This document shows, piece by piece, positions 33,318-40,755 of a stretch of 64,000 bases of DNA. Position 1 is the stretch's first letter. The number at the start of each line of letters is the position of its first letter. Under the pieces are notes generated by a model. That model saw nothing but the letters and a program-made list of their open reading frames with translations. It was not told where the DNA came from and did not search any database. This DNA is from Roseibium album (lineage in GTDB: Bacteria; Pseudomonadota; Alphaproteobacteria; Rhizobiales; Stappiaceae). A program made the position numbers and the translations under genes. The DNA is taken from contig NZ_CXWE01000001.1 in assembly GCF_001404515.1 (NCBI RefSeq), forward strand, positions 496,001 through 560,000. Direction: 5' to 3'.

Positions 33318-34373
33318 ATGAATTCTGCGTTCTTCAACTCAACCCTGACCCGATTGCCCGTGACGATTCTGCTTGCGGCATTGGGGGGAGGGACGTTCTA
33401 TCTGATGGGCTTGCCGGCAGCTTGGTTGTCAGGCGCAATGGTTTTTGTCGCCGCCGCCACACTGGCAGGCGTTCCAACGATCATGCCGGACCCGCTTCGA
33501 GACGCACTGTTTGTCGGCATCGGCGTCTCCATGGGAGCAGGTGTTCGCCCGGATGTGGTGGAACGCATCGGCGACTGGCCGATATCCATGGCCCTGTTGC
33601 TCGTTGTCGTTGTCTGCGTCACGCTTGCCGGATATGCCGTGCTGCATTTTGGTGCCAAATGGTCAAAGGAAACAGCCTTTTTCGGCGCAATTCCGGGGAC
33701 GCTCTCCTATGTGATCGCCTTGGCTACCGATCGTGGTGCCGATCTCCCCCGTATTGCGTCCAGTCAGTCACTCAGGCTTTTCGTTCTGGTTGCGATCCTG
33801 CCTTTCGCGGTGGTGTCGACCAGCGGTACGCTCGAAGGCGAAACCGGCTTGCTGCAAGTCTCCAGCTGGTTTGAAATCATGATCGGCCTGCCCCTCTGTC
33901 TTCTTGCAAGCCTGATCGCGCTGAAGCTGAACGTGCCGGGCGGACTTATGACGGGTGCCTTTTTCATGAGCGCCGGCCTGAATGCATCGGGCGCCTGGAC
34001 ACTTATTTTGCCCGACTACATGGTCTTGCCTTGTTTCGTCTTGATGGGGGCCATGATCGGGTGCCGTTTCGGAAGCATGACTTTCCGGCAGTTCGTCAGC
34101 GTTCTTGGCGCGTCCGTTGCTGCGTTCAGCGCTGCATTCCTGATGTCCATTCTGGGAGCGCTGGCCATATCGTCGCTGGTGGATATCCCGTTCGGTCAGG
34201 CGCTATTGGCCTATGCGCCGGGCGGTCTTGAGGTCATGACCCTCCTGGCATTCATGCTGGATCTTGATCCGGCCTTCGTCGCCGCGCACCAGATTGCCAG
34301 GTTTACCGGCATGGTTTTGCTGTTGCCGTTGATTACCGGACTGGTATTCGGGCGGGCAAAGCCTCGGTCATAG
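33318..34373 (+). CDS. AbrB-type (GAP/YdbO-like) membrane protein
   Basis: A 351-residue hydrophobic protein with about 10 membrane helices. It has two similar halves, each with the pattern of this family (LPAAWLSGAM near residue 35; LNVPGGLMTGAFFMSAG near 205). GAIPGTLSYV and APGGLEVMTLL are the paired conserved loops. The family is often misnamed a transcriptional regulator; it is an integral membrane protein, probably a transporter of unknown substrate. ATG 33318 follows the GST-like gene by 60 bases, so the two may be co-transcribed. A GC-rich hairpin follows. Confidence 0.78.
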   Translation: MNSAFFNSTLTRLPVTILLAALGGGTFYLMGLPAAWLSGAMVFVAAATLAGVPTIMPDPLRDALFVGIGVSMGAGVRPDVVERIGDWPISMALLLVVVVCVTLAGYAVLHFGAKWSKETAFFGAIPGTLSYVIALATDRGADLPRIASSQSLRLFVLVAILPFAVVSTSGTLEGETGLLQVSSWFEIMIGLPLCLLASLIALKLNVPGGLMTGAFFMSAGLNASGAWTLILPDYMVLPCFVLMGAMIGCRFGSMTFRQFVSVLGASVAAFSAAFLMSILGALAISSLVDIPFGQALLAYAPGGLEVMTLLAFMLDLDPAFVAAHQIARFTGMVLLLPLITGLVFGRAKPRS

Positions 34374-34410
34374 CGGCGATGTGATCCGGATATGGGCGCT
34401 GAAATGAAAT

Positions 34411-34442
34411 TCGGGGCGCCGGGTGTTTCACCGGCGCCCCGA
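34411..34442. terminator. GC-rich hairpin between the AbrB-type gene and the chemoreceptor
   Basis: A perfect 11-base stem cggggcgccgg/ccggcgccccg (34412-34422, 34431-34441) with an 8-base loop. It lies between convergent genes. There is no long T run on the plus side; on the minus side A/T-rich aatttcattt follows, so it suits the chemoreceptor operon better. Confidence 0.6.
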
Positions 34443-34461
34443 AGATTGCGTGGACATGGGC

Positions 34462-36789
34462 TCAGGCAGCTGCCTGCAGGTTCATTTGCTCAAGCAGCAT
34501 TTTGAGTTCCGATATATGATCCAGGTTCAGCGGGAACTGCAGGGTGGTGGAATTGTCTTCAACCATTGCAACGCGGGCTTTGATTGTCATCGAAAGCTCT
34601 TCGCATGCAAACACGACCGGAGTGCCGGGAGCCAGGTTGAGCTTGGTGTTGACCGTGCAGTAGGCGGACGAGATTTTCGTTGTGGTGGCATTGATGAGCC
34701 TGCCATCGATTTCCAGTGTCGCCGCCCAGTCTACCTCGTAGATCCGATAGGTTTCGTCGTCACCGCGGCTACCGATCGCGTCGAGGAAGGTTTCAACTTC
34801 GTCGCCCAGAAGCACCGCCTCGTCATAGACCACTGAACTTCCATCCTGAACCAGCTTGGACGAACTTGCGGTGTCCTCGGAGTTCTGTCTCATGACGGAA
34901 ACACTGTCGCGCACACGTGTTGCGCTGCTGGAGACCGTTTCCATGCTCCGCGCGATTTCCGACGTTGCGCTTTCCTGCTGTGTGACCGAAGAGGCAATGC
35001 TGGTCGCGACGTCGTTGATCTCGCGCACGGTGCCATAAATCTCGCCTATGGAGTGTTCAGCGCTTTGGGCAGTCCGCTGGACAGCACCCACCTGGTTGCT
35101 GATCTCACCGGTTGCCCGTGCGGTCTGCGCGGCGAGTTCCTTGACTTCCGAGGCGACCACCGCAAAGCCCTTGCCGGCTTCCCCGGCTCTCGCGGCCTCG
35201 ATTGTGGCGTTCAGGGCCAGGAGATTTGTCTGGTCGGCTATTTCGCGGATCAGGTCGACAACGCTGGTGATCTGGTCAGACGCAGTCACAAGCTCGGTGA
35301 AATTGGCCTTGGTTTCTTCCACCCGGCCGGAGGCACGTGCGGCAATCTCTGCTGAATGATCCGCGTTCCGCCGGATTTCCTGAATGGAGGAAATCAGTTC
35401 TTCCGCGGCGGAGGATACGGTTGCCACCATCGAAGAAGTGTCGCTTGCTTCCTTGTCGAGTACTGTTGCCTGGGACGTCGAGTTTTCCGACGTTTCGGTC
35501 AGTGTGACGGCTGTCTCGGACATTTCGGTCGAGGAATCTGACATCCGTTTGAATATGCCGCGAATGGTATTTCCGAAAATGCCGATCATCTGGTCCAGTT
35601 CGTCGCGGCGACGGTTGGTCGTTTCGCGGTTTCTTTCCTGCTCTTCGCGCATCTTCTGGCGTTCGACCAGTCCGTCGCGGAACACGATGACCGATTGGGT
35701 CATCTCCGCGATTTCATCCTTGCCCTTGGCTTCCGGGATCAGTGTGTCGAGCCGGTTGTGCGACAGGTCGCTCATGGTTTTTGAAAGTCCGTTGATCGGA
35801 CGGCTGATCATCCGGCCAAGAAGGATGGCAGCGGCAAGGCCGATGACAAACCCGATCGCGGTTCCACCAAGCGAAAACATGATCGATTCGGCGGTCTGGG
35901 CGTGCACCTGTTCCTCAAGCTTATGCTCTGCGTTGATCGCGAATTCCTTGATGATATCGAGGTCTTTCGCGATGATTTTCGCCTCTGAGAACATCACATC
36001 ATTTTCCAGATGCGTGATGTCCTTTTCCAGAACACGAAATTCCTCAAGGGCGCTCACGTAGACGTCGATCTGATGCAGGGCGTCGTTGACAAGCTTTTTG
36101 TCTTCGCCATCCAGCTTTGCCATCGCATCGCTGGTCAGGTCTTTTTTGACCCGCTCGACTTCCTTGAGCGCATAGTCAAGTTCGCTTTCCAGTCCCGAGT
36201 AGACGAAGCGGTTGGCATGGTCCCTGGCGATCAGCAGGTGGATCATTGCATCCGTGACGAGTTCAAGCGTTTCTGCCGGCTTGCCGTTCTTGGAATCCTG
36301 TTCCTGCTTGTGTTTGAACACGGTGACGATTTCGTATTGAAGTTTGTCACCGGCCGCGTGCAGGCTGTTGTCGACGATGTCGTGCTGCAATTCGCGTTCA
36401 TGTGCGAGTTTCTTGAAGTTTCCCCAATAGATCTCGACATGCTTCCTGGCATCCTCGAGACGCTCGATTTCTTCCGGCACGTGCAGTTTCTTGATCTTGT
36501 CCGAAATCTGCTGAACGACCTTCGTGTGCGCCGCATCGACCTGCTGAAGATTTTCCTCGGTCGAATTCGCGACGAACTCAATCGCCTTGATCTCCATGTC
36601 GGAAAAAGACTGCGTGATGTCGGTGGCAGCGGCCAGAGCGTTGCCGTGCTCGGTAAACTCGGTGAATTCGTGATCCAGCGTACGGAACATCAGGGCTGAC
36701 TTTCCGCCAAGGAACGCAAGGATCAGCAGCAAAACACCGAACGCGAGCAGAAGTTTCTGCGTTATCCGCATATTAAAAAACCAGGCCAC
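34462..36789 (-). CDS. Methyl-accepting chemotaxis protein with degenerate PilZ tail (LOV operon)
   Basis: A 775-residue receptor. Membrane helix 1 (about 10-32) and helix 2 (about 303-325) flank a 270-residue, almost entirely helical, charged periplasmic region, suggesting a helical bundle (HBM-like) ligand domain. HAMP, a methyl-accepting domain with [16 protein letters not shown] at its tip, and a PilZ-like C-terminus (about 685-770) follow. The PilZ part has YRIYEVDW where RxxxR is expected and lacks the N/DxSxxG motif, so it may not bind c-di-GMP. It starts 35 bases after the receiver-only gene on the same strand, forming an operon with it and the LOV kinase. Confidence 0.82.
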
Positions 36790-36824
36790 GATTTTCCCCT
36801 CCGAAAGCGTGGATGAATTGGTGA

Positions 36825-37193
36825 TCAGTTCGAGGTGAGTGAGCTCACGGTCTCGATCAGGACTTCATTGGTGAAAGGCTTTTTCAGAACTGCATCGGCG
36901 CGGGACGCCGAAAGGCTCAAGGCGTCTTGCGCCGCAATGCCCGACCCGCCGCCGGACATTGCAACTACCTTGGGTCCGCTTCCACCGGACTTGAGCGCGA
37001 AAACGACATCTGTTCCGTCAGATGCCGGCATCATGATATCGGTGATAATCAGGTCGAACTGCCTTTTGGCTGCGATTTCCAACCCCTTGTTGCCGTCGTC
37101 GGTCTCGACAACATCATGCCCTGCCTTGCGAAGTGTCGCTGCAATGGCATGCCGGACTGGCTGCATATCGTCAATCAGTAGAATCTGACACAT
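36825..37193 (-). CDS. Receiver-only response regulator of the LOV kinase operon
   Basis: A 122-residue CheY-like protein with IDD at 7-9, phospho-acceptor D52 in LIITDIMMP, Ser in AMSGG and K in KKPF. ATG 37193 has GGGAGA about 8 bases upstream; the open frame continues into the kinase gene but without family sequence. It is the obvious phosphate acceptor of the LOV kinase 35 bases upstream and may relay to the chemoreceptor array or another output, since it has no DNA-binding domain. Confidence 0.8.
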
Positions 37194-37228
37194 TGGTCTG
37201 TCTCTCCCAGATCTACCGAAATACAACC

Positions 37229-38362
37229 CTACGTAATATTCGGTATATCTATAATAAACATACAACCAAATCCGTCGCCGTTAGGTTGTATCAGGCCGTC
37301 TTCAACTATAATTTGTCCATCAACTTTATTAATAATTTGCAAAGCGACAGGCAGCCCTAAGCCGGAGCTGTTTTTACTGTGGCTTTTTGAGTAAAATGGA
37401 GAAAATACTTTTTCTCTGAGTGAAGGTGGGATGCCGGGGCCATTGTCGGAAATCGAAATTTTCACTCTTGAACTGTCGTGTTCTGCGACTTCTATACGTA
37501 TTTTCCCTGAATGCTTGGTCGCCTGGGACGCATTTGTAATGATATTGATTAATACTTGTGCGAACAGTGTTTCATTGATTGGAACATTCAGTTCCCCTGA
37601 GATGTTTCTGAAACTAGTTTCAATGGTGATGGTCGGTGGAAGCATCAGTCGAACCAGATCGACTGCTCGAATCAGTCCGGCAGGCAGTGTCGTGACATCG
37701 GAGCTGTCCTGGAAACTGCCGCGTGACAGGCCAAGCAGATTGTCCGACAGGTCGGCGGCCTGGTTTGCACTATAGTGTGCCATTTCCAGGTCCTTGCGGA
37801 TGCCCGGATCCTCGATGTCGGGCAAGTGCAGGGAGATCAGGCTCGTGACCGGGTGCAGCAGGTTGTTGAGCTGGTGGGCCAATGCACCTGACGCCGTTCC
37901 TAGCGCTTCCAGGCGGTTCTGTCCGATATTCCGTTCGGCCTGTAGCCGTTCCTCGGTAATGTCGCGCTGGATGCCGAGATACGCCGACAATTGGCCGGAC
38001 TTGTCGAAGATCGGCGCCATACGCAGGGAATTTATGAAAGGCTCACCGGATTTCCTGTAGTTCAGCAACACGACGTCAACAGGTTGCCGAGCCTCGATTG
38101 CCTGCCTGATTTTGGCGACATCATCCCTGTCCGTATCTTCGCCCTGCAGGAAACGGCAGTTGCGACCCAGCACCTCGTCTGCGCTGTATCCTGTCGTTTT
38201 TGTGAATGACGGATTGACGTAAGTGAGAGGCAGGTCCGGAAGTCTGGCGTCCGAGACGCTGACAGTGTCTGGTGACCCTTCAAGCAGTGACTTCAACAAG
38301 TCGGGCGAGCTATCGGCAATTCTTTCCAGAGCCGCATATCCCTGGTCCAGTCGCTTCTGCAT
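37229..38362 (-). CDS. LOV-domain blue-light histidine kinase
   Basis: A 377-residue soluble kinase. Residues 25-138 are a LOV domain: GRNCRFLQG (65-73) with the flavin-adduct Cys69, flavin-contacting Asn101 and Asn111 (LNYRKSGEPFIN) and Gln132 (YLGIQRDIT). A linker helix leads to the phospho-acceptor His163 (ALAHQLNNLLHP) and an HATPase domain (NIITNASQA, DNGPGIP, SSGLGLPVAL). Blue light should form a flavin-cysteinyl adduct and change kinase activity. ATG 38362 is used because GGGGGGA lies 8 bases upstream; the frame begins at 38392. It heads a three-gene minus-strand group with a receiver and a chemoreceptor. Confidence 0.88.
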   Translation of the reverse strand: MQKRLDQGYAALERIADSSPDLLKSLLEGSPDTVSVSDARLPDLPLTYVNPSFTKTTGYSADEVLGRNCRFLQGEDTDRDDVAKIRQAIEARQPVDVVLLNYRKSGEPFINSLRMAPIFDKSGQLSAYLGIQRDITEERLQAERNIGQNRLEALGTASGALAHQLNNLLHPVTSLISLHLPDIEDPGIRKDLEMAHYSANQAADLSDNLLGLSRGSFQDSSDVTTLPAGLIRAVDLVRLMLPPTITIETSFRNISGELNVPINETLFAQVLINIITNASQATKHSGKIRIEVAEHDSSRVKISISDNGPGIPPSLREKVFSPFYSKSHSKNSSGLGLPVALQIINKVDGQIIVEDGLIQPNGDGFGCMFIIDIPNIT

Positions 38363-38440
38363 GTCTGTTTCCCCCCAAGCACTCAAAGGCACGCCAACAG
38401 GAGGGTAGGCAGAGAAACGGAAAAACGGAAGACTGCAGAT

Positions 38441-39763
38441 TCAGGTTCGAACGAAGTGCAGTTCGCCGAACTGTTTCCGCCAGTCCGAGACACGGCTTGC
38501 CATGGCTTCAGGATCGTTTGACCGCAAGGCTTCGGCGATAAGGCGTGCAAGCTCCGGCATGTCGGTTTCAGTCATGCCCCAGCGGACCAGTTCCGGTGTA
38601 CCGAACCGCAGTCCGTTCATGTCCCCGTCGACAGGCGGTACGGGAAGGCCGATGCCGCACGCCAGGAAGCCGGCCTTGCGAAGCTTCTTCGACGCTGCCT
38701 GTCCACCGCCCAGCGAAGCCGCTTCCAGGGCAAACTGGTGTGATCCGGTAAAGCCCAGCCTGGTAGAAAAGACCGGCAGACCTTCTTCAGAAAGGGCTGT
38801 TGCAAGGGCTTTTGCCGTTGCGGCCATCATTTGCGCGTAGGCAGGTCCAAAGTCGCGCCAATCCAGAAGCGATACAGCCAGCGCAGCAGATTTGGCAGCA
38901 TCGAAATTCGCCGTCAGTCCGGGAAAGGCGATCCCGTCGAGCCTTCTGGACAATTCCTGGTCGTTGGTGACAAGTAGCCCGCCTGCCGGCCCGCCAAGGC
39001 TCTTGTAGGTGCTCATGGTCATGAGATGCGCACCTTCCGCCAGCGGATCGGCGAAGACGCCACCTGCAATCATGCCGCACTGATGGGCCGCATCGAACAG
39101 GACATAGGCGCCAATCTCGTCTGCAATCGCCCTGATCTGCGTTACCGGATGCGGAAACAGGTTGAGGCTCATGCCGATCGTGATGAGCTTTGGGCGCAGC
39201 TCCAGGGCCTGGGCCCGCAAGCCCTCCAGATCGATCGTGTATCCGTCCGGATCAACCGGAGCTTCGTGAATTTCGAGCCCGTAAAGGCCGGCGCAACCCG
39301 GACCATGATGCGTCACATGCCCTCCGACGGAGGCGGGAGGAGCGATGATCACGTCGCCGGGTTTTGTGGTCGCCATAAAGGCGTAGAGATTGGCGATAGC
39401 ACCGGATGCGACCCGGATTTCCGCATATGTCGCGCTGAAAATTTCACAGGCAAGCTCGGCGGCAATCACCTCAATCTCTTCAATCGCCTCCAGGCCCATT
39501 TCATATTTGTCGCCCGGATAGCCGAGCGACGGGCGTGATCCGATGCCGCTGGCCAAAAGTGCCTCGGCCTTCGGGTTCATGACATTGGTCGCGGGATTCA
39601 GGTTGAAACAGTCCCGCTCATGGACCTTGCGGTTTTCTGCAACCAGCTGGTCGACGCGACCGGCAACCTGAGCTGAAGTCAGGGGACGGGTGCTCCTGGT
39701 TATTCCGTCGATACGCGAGGCGACGTTTTGCGGCAACCATGGCCGGAGTTCGTGTGCAGACAT
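38441..39763 (-). CDS. Serine hydroxymethyltransferase-like PLP enzyme
   Basis: A 440-residue fold-type I PLP enzyme related to GlyA. It has GYPGDKYEMGLEAIEEIE, the NLYAFMA block, DAAHQCG (224-230) with PLP-binding Asp and His, and the PLP lysine K254 in STYKSLGGPAGG, where true GlyA has T-H-K-T-L-R-G-P-R-G. These changes suggest a paralogue acting on another beta-hydroxy or alpha-methyl amino acid rather than housekeeping SHMT. It is divergent from a GcvA-like LysR regulator that probably controls it. Confidence 0.75.
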   Translation of the reverse strand: MSAHELRPWLPQNVASRIDGITRSTRPLTSAQVAGRVDQLVAENRKVHERDCFNLNPATNVMNPKAEALLASGIGSRPSLGYPGDKYEMGLEAIEEIEVIAAELACEIFSATYAEIRVASGAIANLYAFMATTKPGDVIIAPPASVGGHVTHHGPGCAGLYGLEIHEAPVDPDGYTIDLEGLRAQALELRPKLITIGMSLNLFPHPVTQIRAIADEIGAYVLFDAAHQCGMIAGGVFADPLAEGAHLMTMSTYKSLGGPAGGLLVTNDQELSRRLDGIAFPGLTANFDAAKSAALAVSLLDWRDFGPAYAQMMAATAKALATALSEEGLPVFSTRLGFTGSHQFALEAASLGGGQAASKKLRKAGFLACGIGLPVPPVDGDMNGLRFGTPELVRWGMTETDMPELARLIAEALRSNDPEAMASRVSDWRKQFGELHFVRT

Positions 39764-39864
39764 TCAGGTTTCTCCAATCCGAATTGCAATCAGAGTGGAC
39801 CCGGGCTTGCACATTCGCAAATCAGATTTTAGAAAAACAAGGGCCAGAAAAAATAGGTCAAAAG

Positions 39865-40755
39865 ATGCCTGTATCACCCCCGACACCTCGAATTCCGTCG
39901 CTCAATGCCCTTCGTGCCTTCGAAGCGGCCGCGCGGCTTGGCGGATTTGCGCTGGCAGCCGAAGAACTCGGAGTGACCCCGGGTGCGGTTGCCGCACAAA
40001 TCAAGTCGCTGGAAGAGGAGATCGGTGCCAGCCTGTTCGTCCGCAGTACCCGAGGTGTGACGCTTACACCGATTGGGCAAAGAGCACTGCCGGCATTCGT
40101 GGAGGTTTTCGATTCTCTGGGCCAGGCGGTGCGCGACCTCAGGCAGGATGCCACGCCCCACAAGGTGCACATTGCCGCACTGCCTGCCCTGGCGCAGCTC
40201 TGGCTCGCACCGCGACTTCCGATGCTGCGAGAAAGACTGCCTGACGTCGATGTGTCAGTGACTGCCATGGAAACGCCGCCAAACCTCAAACGGGTGCCGT
40301 TCGATCTTTGCCTGTTTTACACAAACACCACCCCCCCGGGAGGAGTACAGCTGGGAAGTGAAGAAATCCTGCCGGTCTGCGTTCCCGAACTGGCGCGCAA
40401 ACTCACGCGGCCGGAAGACCTGAAAACTGTTTCCTGCCTGACTGATATTGCATGGGCCGATGACTGGAAGCTGTGGGCGCAAAGAGTGATGCCGGAAGCC
40501 GACTTCAGTCCCGACGGTCCGGTCTTTTCACTTTATTCGGTTGCACTCCAGGAGGCGTTGAGCGGGGCAGGTGTTCTCATGGCACACAAGTCCCTCGTTT
40601 TGCATCATCTCCGGAAGGGAGAGTTGGTGGCCCCATTCAAGACACAGGTGCCGCTCACAGGGAGAATTACAATGTGGATTTTGCCAAGCAGGCATCACAT
40701 TAAAATTCTCAGCGATGTCGTTGAAAGCCTGAAGCAATCTGGTTCGGTATTTTGA
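39865..40755 (+). CDS. LysR-family regulator (GcvA-like)
   Basis: A 296-residue LysR protein. The winged helix (about 10-70) has LNALRAFEAAARLGGFALAAEELGVTPGAVAAQIKSLE, close to GcvA, and the effector-binding domain fills residues 95-290. ATG 39865 is used with AGGT upstream; the frame opens earlier from within the divergent gene's promoter. It probably regulates the adjacent SHMT-like gene in response to glycine or a related amino acid; this is inferred from gene order and the GcvA resemblance. Confidence 0.82.
   Translation: MPVSPPTPRIPSLNALRAFEAAARLGGFALAAEELGVTPGAVAAQIKSLEEEIGASLFVRSTRGVTLTPIGQRALPAFVEVFDSLGQAVRDLRQDATPHKVHIAALPALAQLWLAPRLPMLRERLPDVDVSVTAMETPPNLKRVPFDLCLFYTNTTPPGGVQLGSEEILPVCVPELARKLTRPEDLKTVSCLTDIAWADDWKLWAQRVMPEADFSPDGPVFSLYSVALQEALSGAGVLMAHKSLVLHHLRKGELVAPFKTQVPLTGRITMWILPSRHHIKILSDVVESLKQSGSVF

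What the first reader, a model, noticed from the sequence alone, without database searches (positions are those of the whole stretch)
34462..38362. Blue-light kinase, receiver and chemoreceptor in one operon
Three minus-strand genes are packed together: a LOV kinase with Cys69, Asn101, Asn111 and Gln132 intact, then a receiver-only protein (35 bases later), then a chemoreceptor (35 bases later). The sequence shows the arrangement directly. LOV chemistry is established for blue-light kinases. The inference is that light changes receiver phosphorylation and acts on taxis, adaptation or the receptor's PilZ-like tail. I know LOV kinases with receivers, but not a fixed unit with a chemoreceptor, so this may be a little-described photoresponse module.
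Basis: partly seen in the sequence, partly recalled or inferred. Interest (0 to 1): 0.75.

Follow-up and report, generated by a model that had tools for sequence, protein, structure and literature searches.

The report
Blue-light kinase–receiver–chemoreceptor cassette
Some marine Roseibium-type bacteria carry a block of three genes, encoding a predicted blue-light-sensing kinase, a small receiver protein and a chemoreceptor with an unusual tail, that is present or missing as one piece at its usual site and likely lets light adjust how cells respond to chemical gradients.

Summary
A LOV kinase (37229-38362), a receiver-only protein (36825-37193) and a chemoreceptor (34462-36789) lie on the minus strand 35 bases apart, with the LOV and receiver key residues intact. 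The trio is a real evolutionary unit. Among 45 genomes of the genus, the chemoreceptor's tail was found at 14 places, all 14 beside a LOV kinase and receiver in this order. A diverged second version (29-44% identical) exists in two of these genomes, and a relative in another family keeps the order. In 12 genomes the two flanking genes are neighbours with the trio absent. The chemoreceptor also has a predicted McpS-like (HBM) periplasmic sensor, and the genome has a CheA/W/Y/B/R set to receive its signal. Best inference: light changes receiver phosphorylation, and the receiver acts on the chemoreceptor through the degenerate PilZ tail. No phosphotransfer, binding or taxis was tested. I found no description of this trio in the papers searched. 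New variant of a known kind.

The parts
37229..38362 (-). LOV histidine kinase, 377 aa, no transmembrane stretch; LOV domain about residues 21-140 (Cys69), predicted phospho-acceptor His163, HATPase_c 264-374
36825..37193 (-). receiver-only response regulator, 122 aa, Asp52 phospho-acceptor, 'SGGG' subtype, 28% identical to the genome's own CheY
34462..36789 (-). chemoreceptor, 775 aa: two transmembrane regions (near residues 9-27 and 307-332), periplasmic helical sensor, HAMP 323-375, MCP signalling 476-635, PilZ-like tail
35890..36699 (-). periplasmic sensor domain of the chemoreceptor (residues 31-300), predicted HBM fold, closest solved structure McpS
34465..34785 (-). C-terminal degenerate PilZ-like domain of the chemoreceptor (residues 669-775)
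38402..38431 (-). conserved element upstream of the kinase gene (CTTCCGTTTT-N7-CTCTGCCTACCCT here); recognisable in the 10 loci aligned; likely promoter or operator, factor unknown
34410..34443 (-). terminator-like hairpin after the chemoreceptor gene (13 pairs, 11 G-C); would end a three-gene transcript
   Evidence: the region as a whole has no excess of such sites (3 found, 5.2 expected)
38441..39763 (-). flanking gene, SHMT-like PLP enzyme: left border of the cassette, not part of it
33318..34373 (+). flanking gene, AbrB-family membrane protein: right border of the cassette, not part of it

Best explanation
The three genes form one inherited cassette in which a predicted blue-light LOV kinase likely sets the phosphorylation of the neighbouring receiver, and the receiver would then act on the neighbouring chemoreceptor, probably through its degenerate PilZ-like tail, so that light would tune the signal that this receptor sends to the CheA chemotaxis kinase. 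Shown: order, spacing, intact residues, co-inheritance, the cassette's all-or-none presence at its usual site, the tail's missing c-di-GMP motifs, and a che gene set elsewhere in the genome. Predicted by model: the tail's PilZ fold and the HBM sensor fold. Inferred: flavin photochemistry, phosphotransfer to this receiver, binding of the receiver to the tail, and the effect on taxis. Polarity guess (weak): the linker between the LOV domain and the phospho-acceptor is exactly one heptad shorter than in the light-repressed kinase SB2F1, so the kinase would be on in the dark and a net phosphatase in blue light.
Against: No interaction, phosphotransfer or light assay. Members of one genus share ancestry, so the 12 type-A cases are not independent. 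In G747 the kinase gene is convergent with, not upstream of, the receiver-chemoreceptor pair. A kinase-receiver pair with the same receiver subtype exists without a chemoreceptor (G526), so such a receiver need not act on one. In the class search no trio was seen around 27 of 30 tail-model hits; they are other chemoreceptors, small proteins or unidentified frames. Five contig lengths are shared by receiver and chemoreceptor hits without a listed LOV kinase, so some relatives may lack it. 8 of 11 loci with a LOV-like cysteine motif read have no chemoreceptor match in the stretch held, so LOV kinases of this wider group mostly work without one. The linker of 29 is shared by wider relatives, so the polarity guess is not specific to this trio.
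Confidence: 0.45

Rival explanations
1. The receiver works away from the receptor, as a CheY-like motor ligand, a phosphate sink, or a LovR-type regulator of stress or attachment, and the chemoreceptor is only co-expressed with it.
For: LovK-LovR, a LOV kinase with a single-domain receiver, is known in Caulobacter (search listings, rest recalled). A receiver of the same subtype pairs with a non-LOV kinase without any chemoreceptor (G526).
Against: The receiver is only 28% identical to the genome's CheY. A shared light response without contact would not need the receiver and chemoreceptor to stay adjacent where the kinase gene is turned round (G747), nor the special tail to be found only beside this system within the genus.
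Confidence: 0.27
2. The direction is reversed: the chemoreceptor, with its periplasmic ligand and its tail, regulates the LOV kinase or holds the receiver, so that a nutrient signal gates the light response.
For: The receptor has its own predicted McpS-like sensor domain; a protein of the tail's fold binds a partner protein, MapZ with CheR1 (title of 5xly).
Against: I recall no case of a chemoreceptor controlling a separate soluble histidine kinase outside the CheA array; nothing in the sequences favours it over the forward direction.
Confidence: 0.13
3. No functional link: the genes are neighbours by shared ancestry within one genus.
For: The flanking SHMT-like and AbrB genes are syntenic too in 11 of the 12 type-A genomes.
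Against: The trio without those neighbours in G027, the diverged type-B trio, the trio in G525, and clean absence in 12 genomes between the same neighbours.
Confidence: 0.05
4. The tail still binds a nucleotide second messenger in an altered way, making this a light plus c-di-GMP integration point.
For: Type-B trios sit between two GGDEF-EAL genes; PilZ chemoreceptors tied to c-di-GMP exist in Azospirillum and Azorhizobium (PMC6406031, passages; PMC6454048, listing).
Against: RxxxR in 0 of 24 tails; [DN]xSxxG in 1 of 24, out of register, against 8 and 7 of 9 own-genome PilZ domains. In type B, G525 and G747 neither motif stands in register; type B has an RxxxR string out of register and keeps one arginine of the motif in register.
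Confidence: 0.1

Closest known systems
LovK-LovR of Caulobacter crescentus and Brucella LOV-HK (recalled; listings)
   Same: Soluble LOV histidine kinase with a single-domain receiver partner.
   Different: The kinase here is far under the cut-off of the NCBIfam blue-light kinase model (126.9 bits against 450) and a chemoreceptor is the third gene.
PRK13557-type histidine kinases (NCBIfam NF010076)
   Same: Best NCBIfam model for this kinase (191.8 bits, residues 21-350).
   Different: Below the model's cut-off of 631; the receiver is a separate protein here.
Chemoreceptors with C-terminal PilZ (Azospirillum Tlp1 and Aer, Azorhizobium Cbp1)
   Same: Chemoreceptor ending in a PilZ fold.
   Different: Azospirillum Aer has the c-di-GMP residues (PMC6406031, passages); here they are missing, and there is a dedicated two-component pair beside the receptor gene.
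Sensory rhodopsin with its transducer Htr
   Same: A photoreceptor working through an MCP-type transducer (PMC6798134, passages).
   Different: There the two form a direct complex with a retinal pigment; here a flavin kinase and a receiver would stand between.
PYP-MCP fusions
   Same: Blue-light sensor linked to a chemoreceptor (12 cases, PMC12826048, passages).
   Different: Covalent fusion and a different pigment (p-coumaric acid).
McpS (solved ligand-binding domain, 2yfa/2yfb)
   Same: Predicted fold of the periplasmic sensor (TM-score 0.72-0.76 by the model's length, 0.82-0.85 by the target's).
   Different: 13-14% identity; ligand here unknown; no role of McpS in light sensing known to me.

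Membership tests
LOV photoreceptor domain | Photoactive Cys in the GxNCRFLQ motif plus flavin-contacting Asn, Asn and Gln | tested here: met
   C69, N101, N111, Q132 invariant in 19 of 19 and 12 of 12 (8 rows in both)
LOV photoreceptor domain | Binds flavin and forms a light-driven adduct | not testable with these tools
   needs purified protein
Histidine kinase (HisKA/HATPase_c) | HATPase_c domain and a phospho-acceptor His in an H-box | tested here: met
   PF02518 72.1 bits over 26.4; H163 invariant; PF00512 itself is below cut-off here (17.7 against 26.9) but above it in G525 and G747
NCBIfam blue-light-activated histidine kinase (NF052306) | Score above the curated cut-off of 450 bits | tested here: not met
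   126.9 bits, best stretch residues 34-150
CheY-type receiver | DD, phospho-acceptor Asp, Ser/Thr, Lys | tested here: met
   10 of 10; PF00072 74.7 bits
Methyl-accepting chemotaxis protein | Transmembrane stretches, HAMP and MCP signalling domain with conserved hairpin tip | tested here: met
PilZ domain | PilZ beta-barrel fold | tested here: met
   predicted model only; profile match
PilZ domain | Match to Pfam PF07238 | tested here: not met
   no family at E<=10 for the tail; tail not among the 10 own-genome PilZ matches
PilZ domain, c-di-GMP-binding | RxxxR and [D/N]xSxxG motifs | tested here: not met
   0 of 24 and 1 of 24 (out of register); not in register in type B, G525 and G747 either
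HBM sensor domain | Helical bimodular fold as in McpS | tested here: met
   predicted model: four McpS chains are the only matches at E<=0.001; Pfam PF16591 26.3 bits is under its cut-off 29.8, and 4HB_MCP_1 27.7 is just over its cut-off 27
LovK-LovR system | Cognate phosphotransfer from LOV kinase to its receiver | not testable with these tools
   needs purified proteins

The most novel reading that the evidence does not exclude
A light-gated chemoreceptor of a new design: a complete LOV two-component system whose phospho-receiver docks on a PilZ domain that has lost c-di-GMP binding and been turned into a receiver-docking module, so that an ordinary two-component pathway writes directly into a chemoreceptor array; the whole design travels as one three-gene cassette and exists in at least two diverged versions.
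Probability: 0.38. Interest if true: 0.82.

Novelty: new variant of a known kind. Interest (0 to 1): 0.62.

Why it matters
How LOV photoreceptors reach motility in flagellated bacteria is, as far as I know, mostly open; effects of LOV kinases on swarming and flagella are reported (PMC4844311, passages). This cassette names a candidate pathway with every part present and a natural presence/absence contrast among close relatives. It also offers a testable case of a conventional two-component system feeding into a chemoreceptor, and a PilZ domain that appears to have been repurposed from nucleotide to protein binding. If it works as inferred it would be a ready-made light input for chemotaxis.

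Tried and rejected
Null of recent shared ancestry: rejected as the whole story by the G027, type-B and G525 copies and the empty sites. c-di-GMP sensing by the tail: judged unlikely on motifs. Regulon of the upstream element: a strict pattern with up to 3 mismatches found only this operon in the genome; a looser one found 4 places against 12 for the reversed control, so no regulon was inferred. Sigma-70 scan: one weak site, at chance level. Foreign origin by composition: kinase 51.4%, receiver 55.8%, chemoreceptor 55.4% G+C against 56.4% for the window, not decisive. Neighbouring kinase and receiver genes without a chemoreceptor (G526, G537, G512, G627, G686, G742) were looked at as possible wider members and not included; in G627 the two genes are divergent, and in G537 the contig ends about 0.9 kb after the receiver. 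Of 37 loci read, 11 have a LOV-like cysteine motif (a simple text pattern); 3 of these have a chemoreceptor within the stretch held (about 1.5 kb each side) and 8 do not. Contig-length matches between protein lists (matched by eye): kinase and receiver share 9 lengths, receiver and chemoreceptor 9, kinase and chemoreceptor 7, all three 4; equal length suggests but does not prove the same contig, and the lists show 120 of 1152 kinase hits, 120 of 155 chemoreceptor hits and all 34 receiver hits. Presence of the kinase in the last 8 genus genomes was checked only in the 3 that have the tail. The order search (397 genomes) gave 6 genomes with a tail hit: this one, G011 and four weak ones (E 2.5e-5 to 8.3e-4) with no trio in the stretch held. 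The own-genome PilZ alignment leaves out 1 of 10 matches (one with a stop in its frame). Papers: searches found no description of a LOV kinase-receiver-chemoreceptor trio; only open-licence papers are held, I saw listings cut at 10-20 rows, and of 8 papers opened I read passages, not whole texts.

Full report
What is there. On the minus strand of the window lie a 377-aa LOV histidine kinase (37229-38362), a 122-aa receiver (36825-37193) and a 775-aa chemoreceptor (34462-36789), 35 bases apart each. A strong hairpin follows the chemoreceptor (34410-34443). The nearest named relative is Labrenzia sp. DG1229 (kinase 97% identical) and the next four are Roseibium or Labrenzia at 72-77%, so the window is very probably Roseibium; the genome itself is held without a name.

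Residues. Its best-scoring solved relative is the engineered kinase of entry 8a3u, SB2F1, which is light-repressed (PMC13322254, passages). The receiver keeps all catalytic positions in 10 of 10 aligned rows and is 28% identical to the genome's CheY.

A unit, not neighbours by accident. The chemoreceptor tail, used as a profile, hits 13 of 45 genomes of the genus at 14 places. All 14 lie beside a LOV kinase and receiver in the same order. Twelve are type A, close to the window; two are type B, in G007 and G027, with identities of only 33-34% (kinase), 44% (receiver) and 29% (chemoreceptor). G027 has both types about 30 kb apart, and no usual flanking gene was seen beside its type A. In 61 related genomes, close kinase orthologues and the window's own tail occur in the same 9. 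Outside the genus, 385 genomes of the class (this one included) gave 30 tail hits in 24 genomes; 3 are in trios (this one, G525 and G747), and no trio was seen around the other 27 in the stretches held. G525 keeps the order kinase-receiver-chemoreceptor, with kinase and receiver overlapping by 8 bases. In G747 receiver and chemoreceptor are adjacent but the kinase gene faces them and overlaps the chemoreceptor end by 4 bases.

Empty site. The SHMT-like gene upstream was found in 32 of 45 genus genomes at E<=1e-100. Thirty of these loci were examined: 11 carry the kinase directly downstream; 12 have the AbrB gene there instead, 17-526 bases away, with no kinase; 7 have neither in the 1.5 kb held. 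Cassette-less G022 has the flanking gene most like the window's after G030 (85%), so gain or loss happened among close relatives, and as one block.

The chemoreceptor. It has two transmembrane regions. Its periplasmic part is predicted as a long helical bundle (mean pLDDT 86.2) whose only matches at E<=0.001 are four McpS chains; the Pfam HBM score is just under its cut-off and that of the four-helix-bundle family just over its own. The cytoplasmic part is a normal signalling hairpin. The genome has CheA, CheW, CheY, CheB and CheR genes in a row, and CheW-type domains nowhere else, so the receptor has one array to join.

How it probably works. Inference: light switches the kinase, the receiver's phosphorylation follows, and the receiver touches the chemoreceptor. 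The tail is the natural docking place, because within the genus this tail was found only beside this kind of receiver, because receiver and chemoreceptor stay adjacent even where the kinase is turned round, and because a PilZ fold without its nucleotide motifs suggests protein binding; MapZ, a PilZ protein, is seen bound to CheR1 (5xly). The kinase's linker is 29 residues from D134 to H163 in every row aligned (23 distinct sequences), against 36 in SB2F1 (counted by hand): one heptad. Linkers of 7n residues gave light-repressed kinases in the YF1 series (PMC6798134, passages). So the weak prediction is kinase on in the dark, off in blue light.

Control of expression. Upstream of the kinase gene lies an element recognisable in the 10 loci aligned, found once in the genome. 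What reads it is unknown; the looser pattern was not enriched over its control.

Against. Nothing biochemical was tested. Genus members share ancestry. A kinase-receiver pair with this receiver subtype exists without a chemoreceptor (G526), and 8 of 11 loci with a LOV-like motif read have no chemoreceptor match nearby. Some relatives of the receiver and chemoreceptor come from contig lengths with no listed LOV kinase, though that list shows 120 of 1152 hits and a kinase as long as G525's would have escaped the search by its length limit.

Known systems. LovK-LovR (listings and recall) gives the kinase-receiver half, Azospirillum and Azorhizobium PilZ receptors the receptor-PilZ half (PMC6406031, passages; PMC6454048, listing), and sensory rhodopsin-Htr and PYP-MCP fusions the light-to-receptor idea. 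The combination, with a PilZ tail lacking the c-di-GMP motifs, was not found in the searches listed under Tried and rejected.

Verdict.

Noticed in passing
L120:882-10115 and L122:3133-12365: The type-B trio in G027 and G007 is flanked on both sides by PAS-GGDEF-EAL genes (for G027); the downstream one has a LOV-like PAS without the cysteine, and in G007 its frame is broken.
   Followed up: partly
window 38441-39763: SHMT-like enzyme: over the Pfam SHMT cut-off, but under the NCBIfam PRK00011 one (287 against 335 bits), with some similarity to fluorothreonine transaldolase (176 bits, cut-off 650), and a divergent LysR-like gene at 39739-40755.
   Followed up: no
L096, L097, L098: Short stand-alone LOV-like frames (130 aa) in genus genomes that lack the trio (G008, G001, G004).
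   Followed up: no
L237:7783-10581: The genome's CheA has two CheW-like domains and a C-terminal receiver (932 aa).
   Followed up: no
window 37200-37599: The end of the kinase gene is markedly A+T-rich (41% G+C against 56% for the window).
   Followed up: no
window 38402-38431: Conserved element upstream of type-A trios that matches no promoter consensus I could name.
   Followed up: partly
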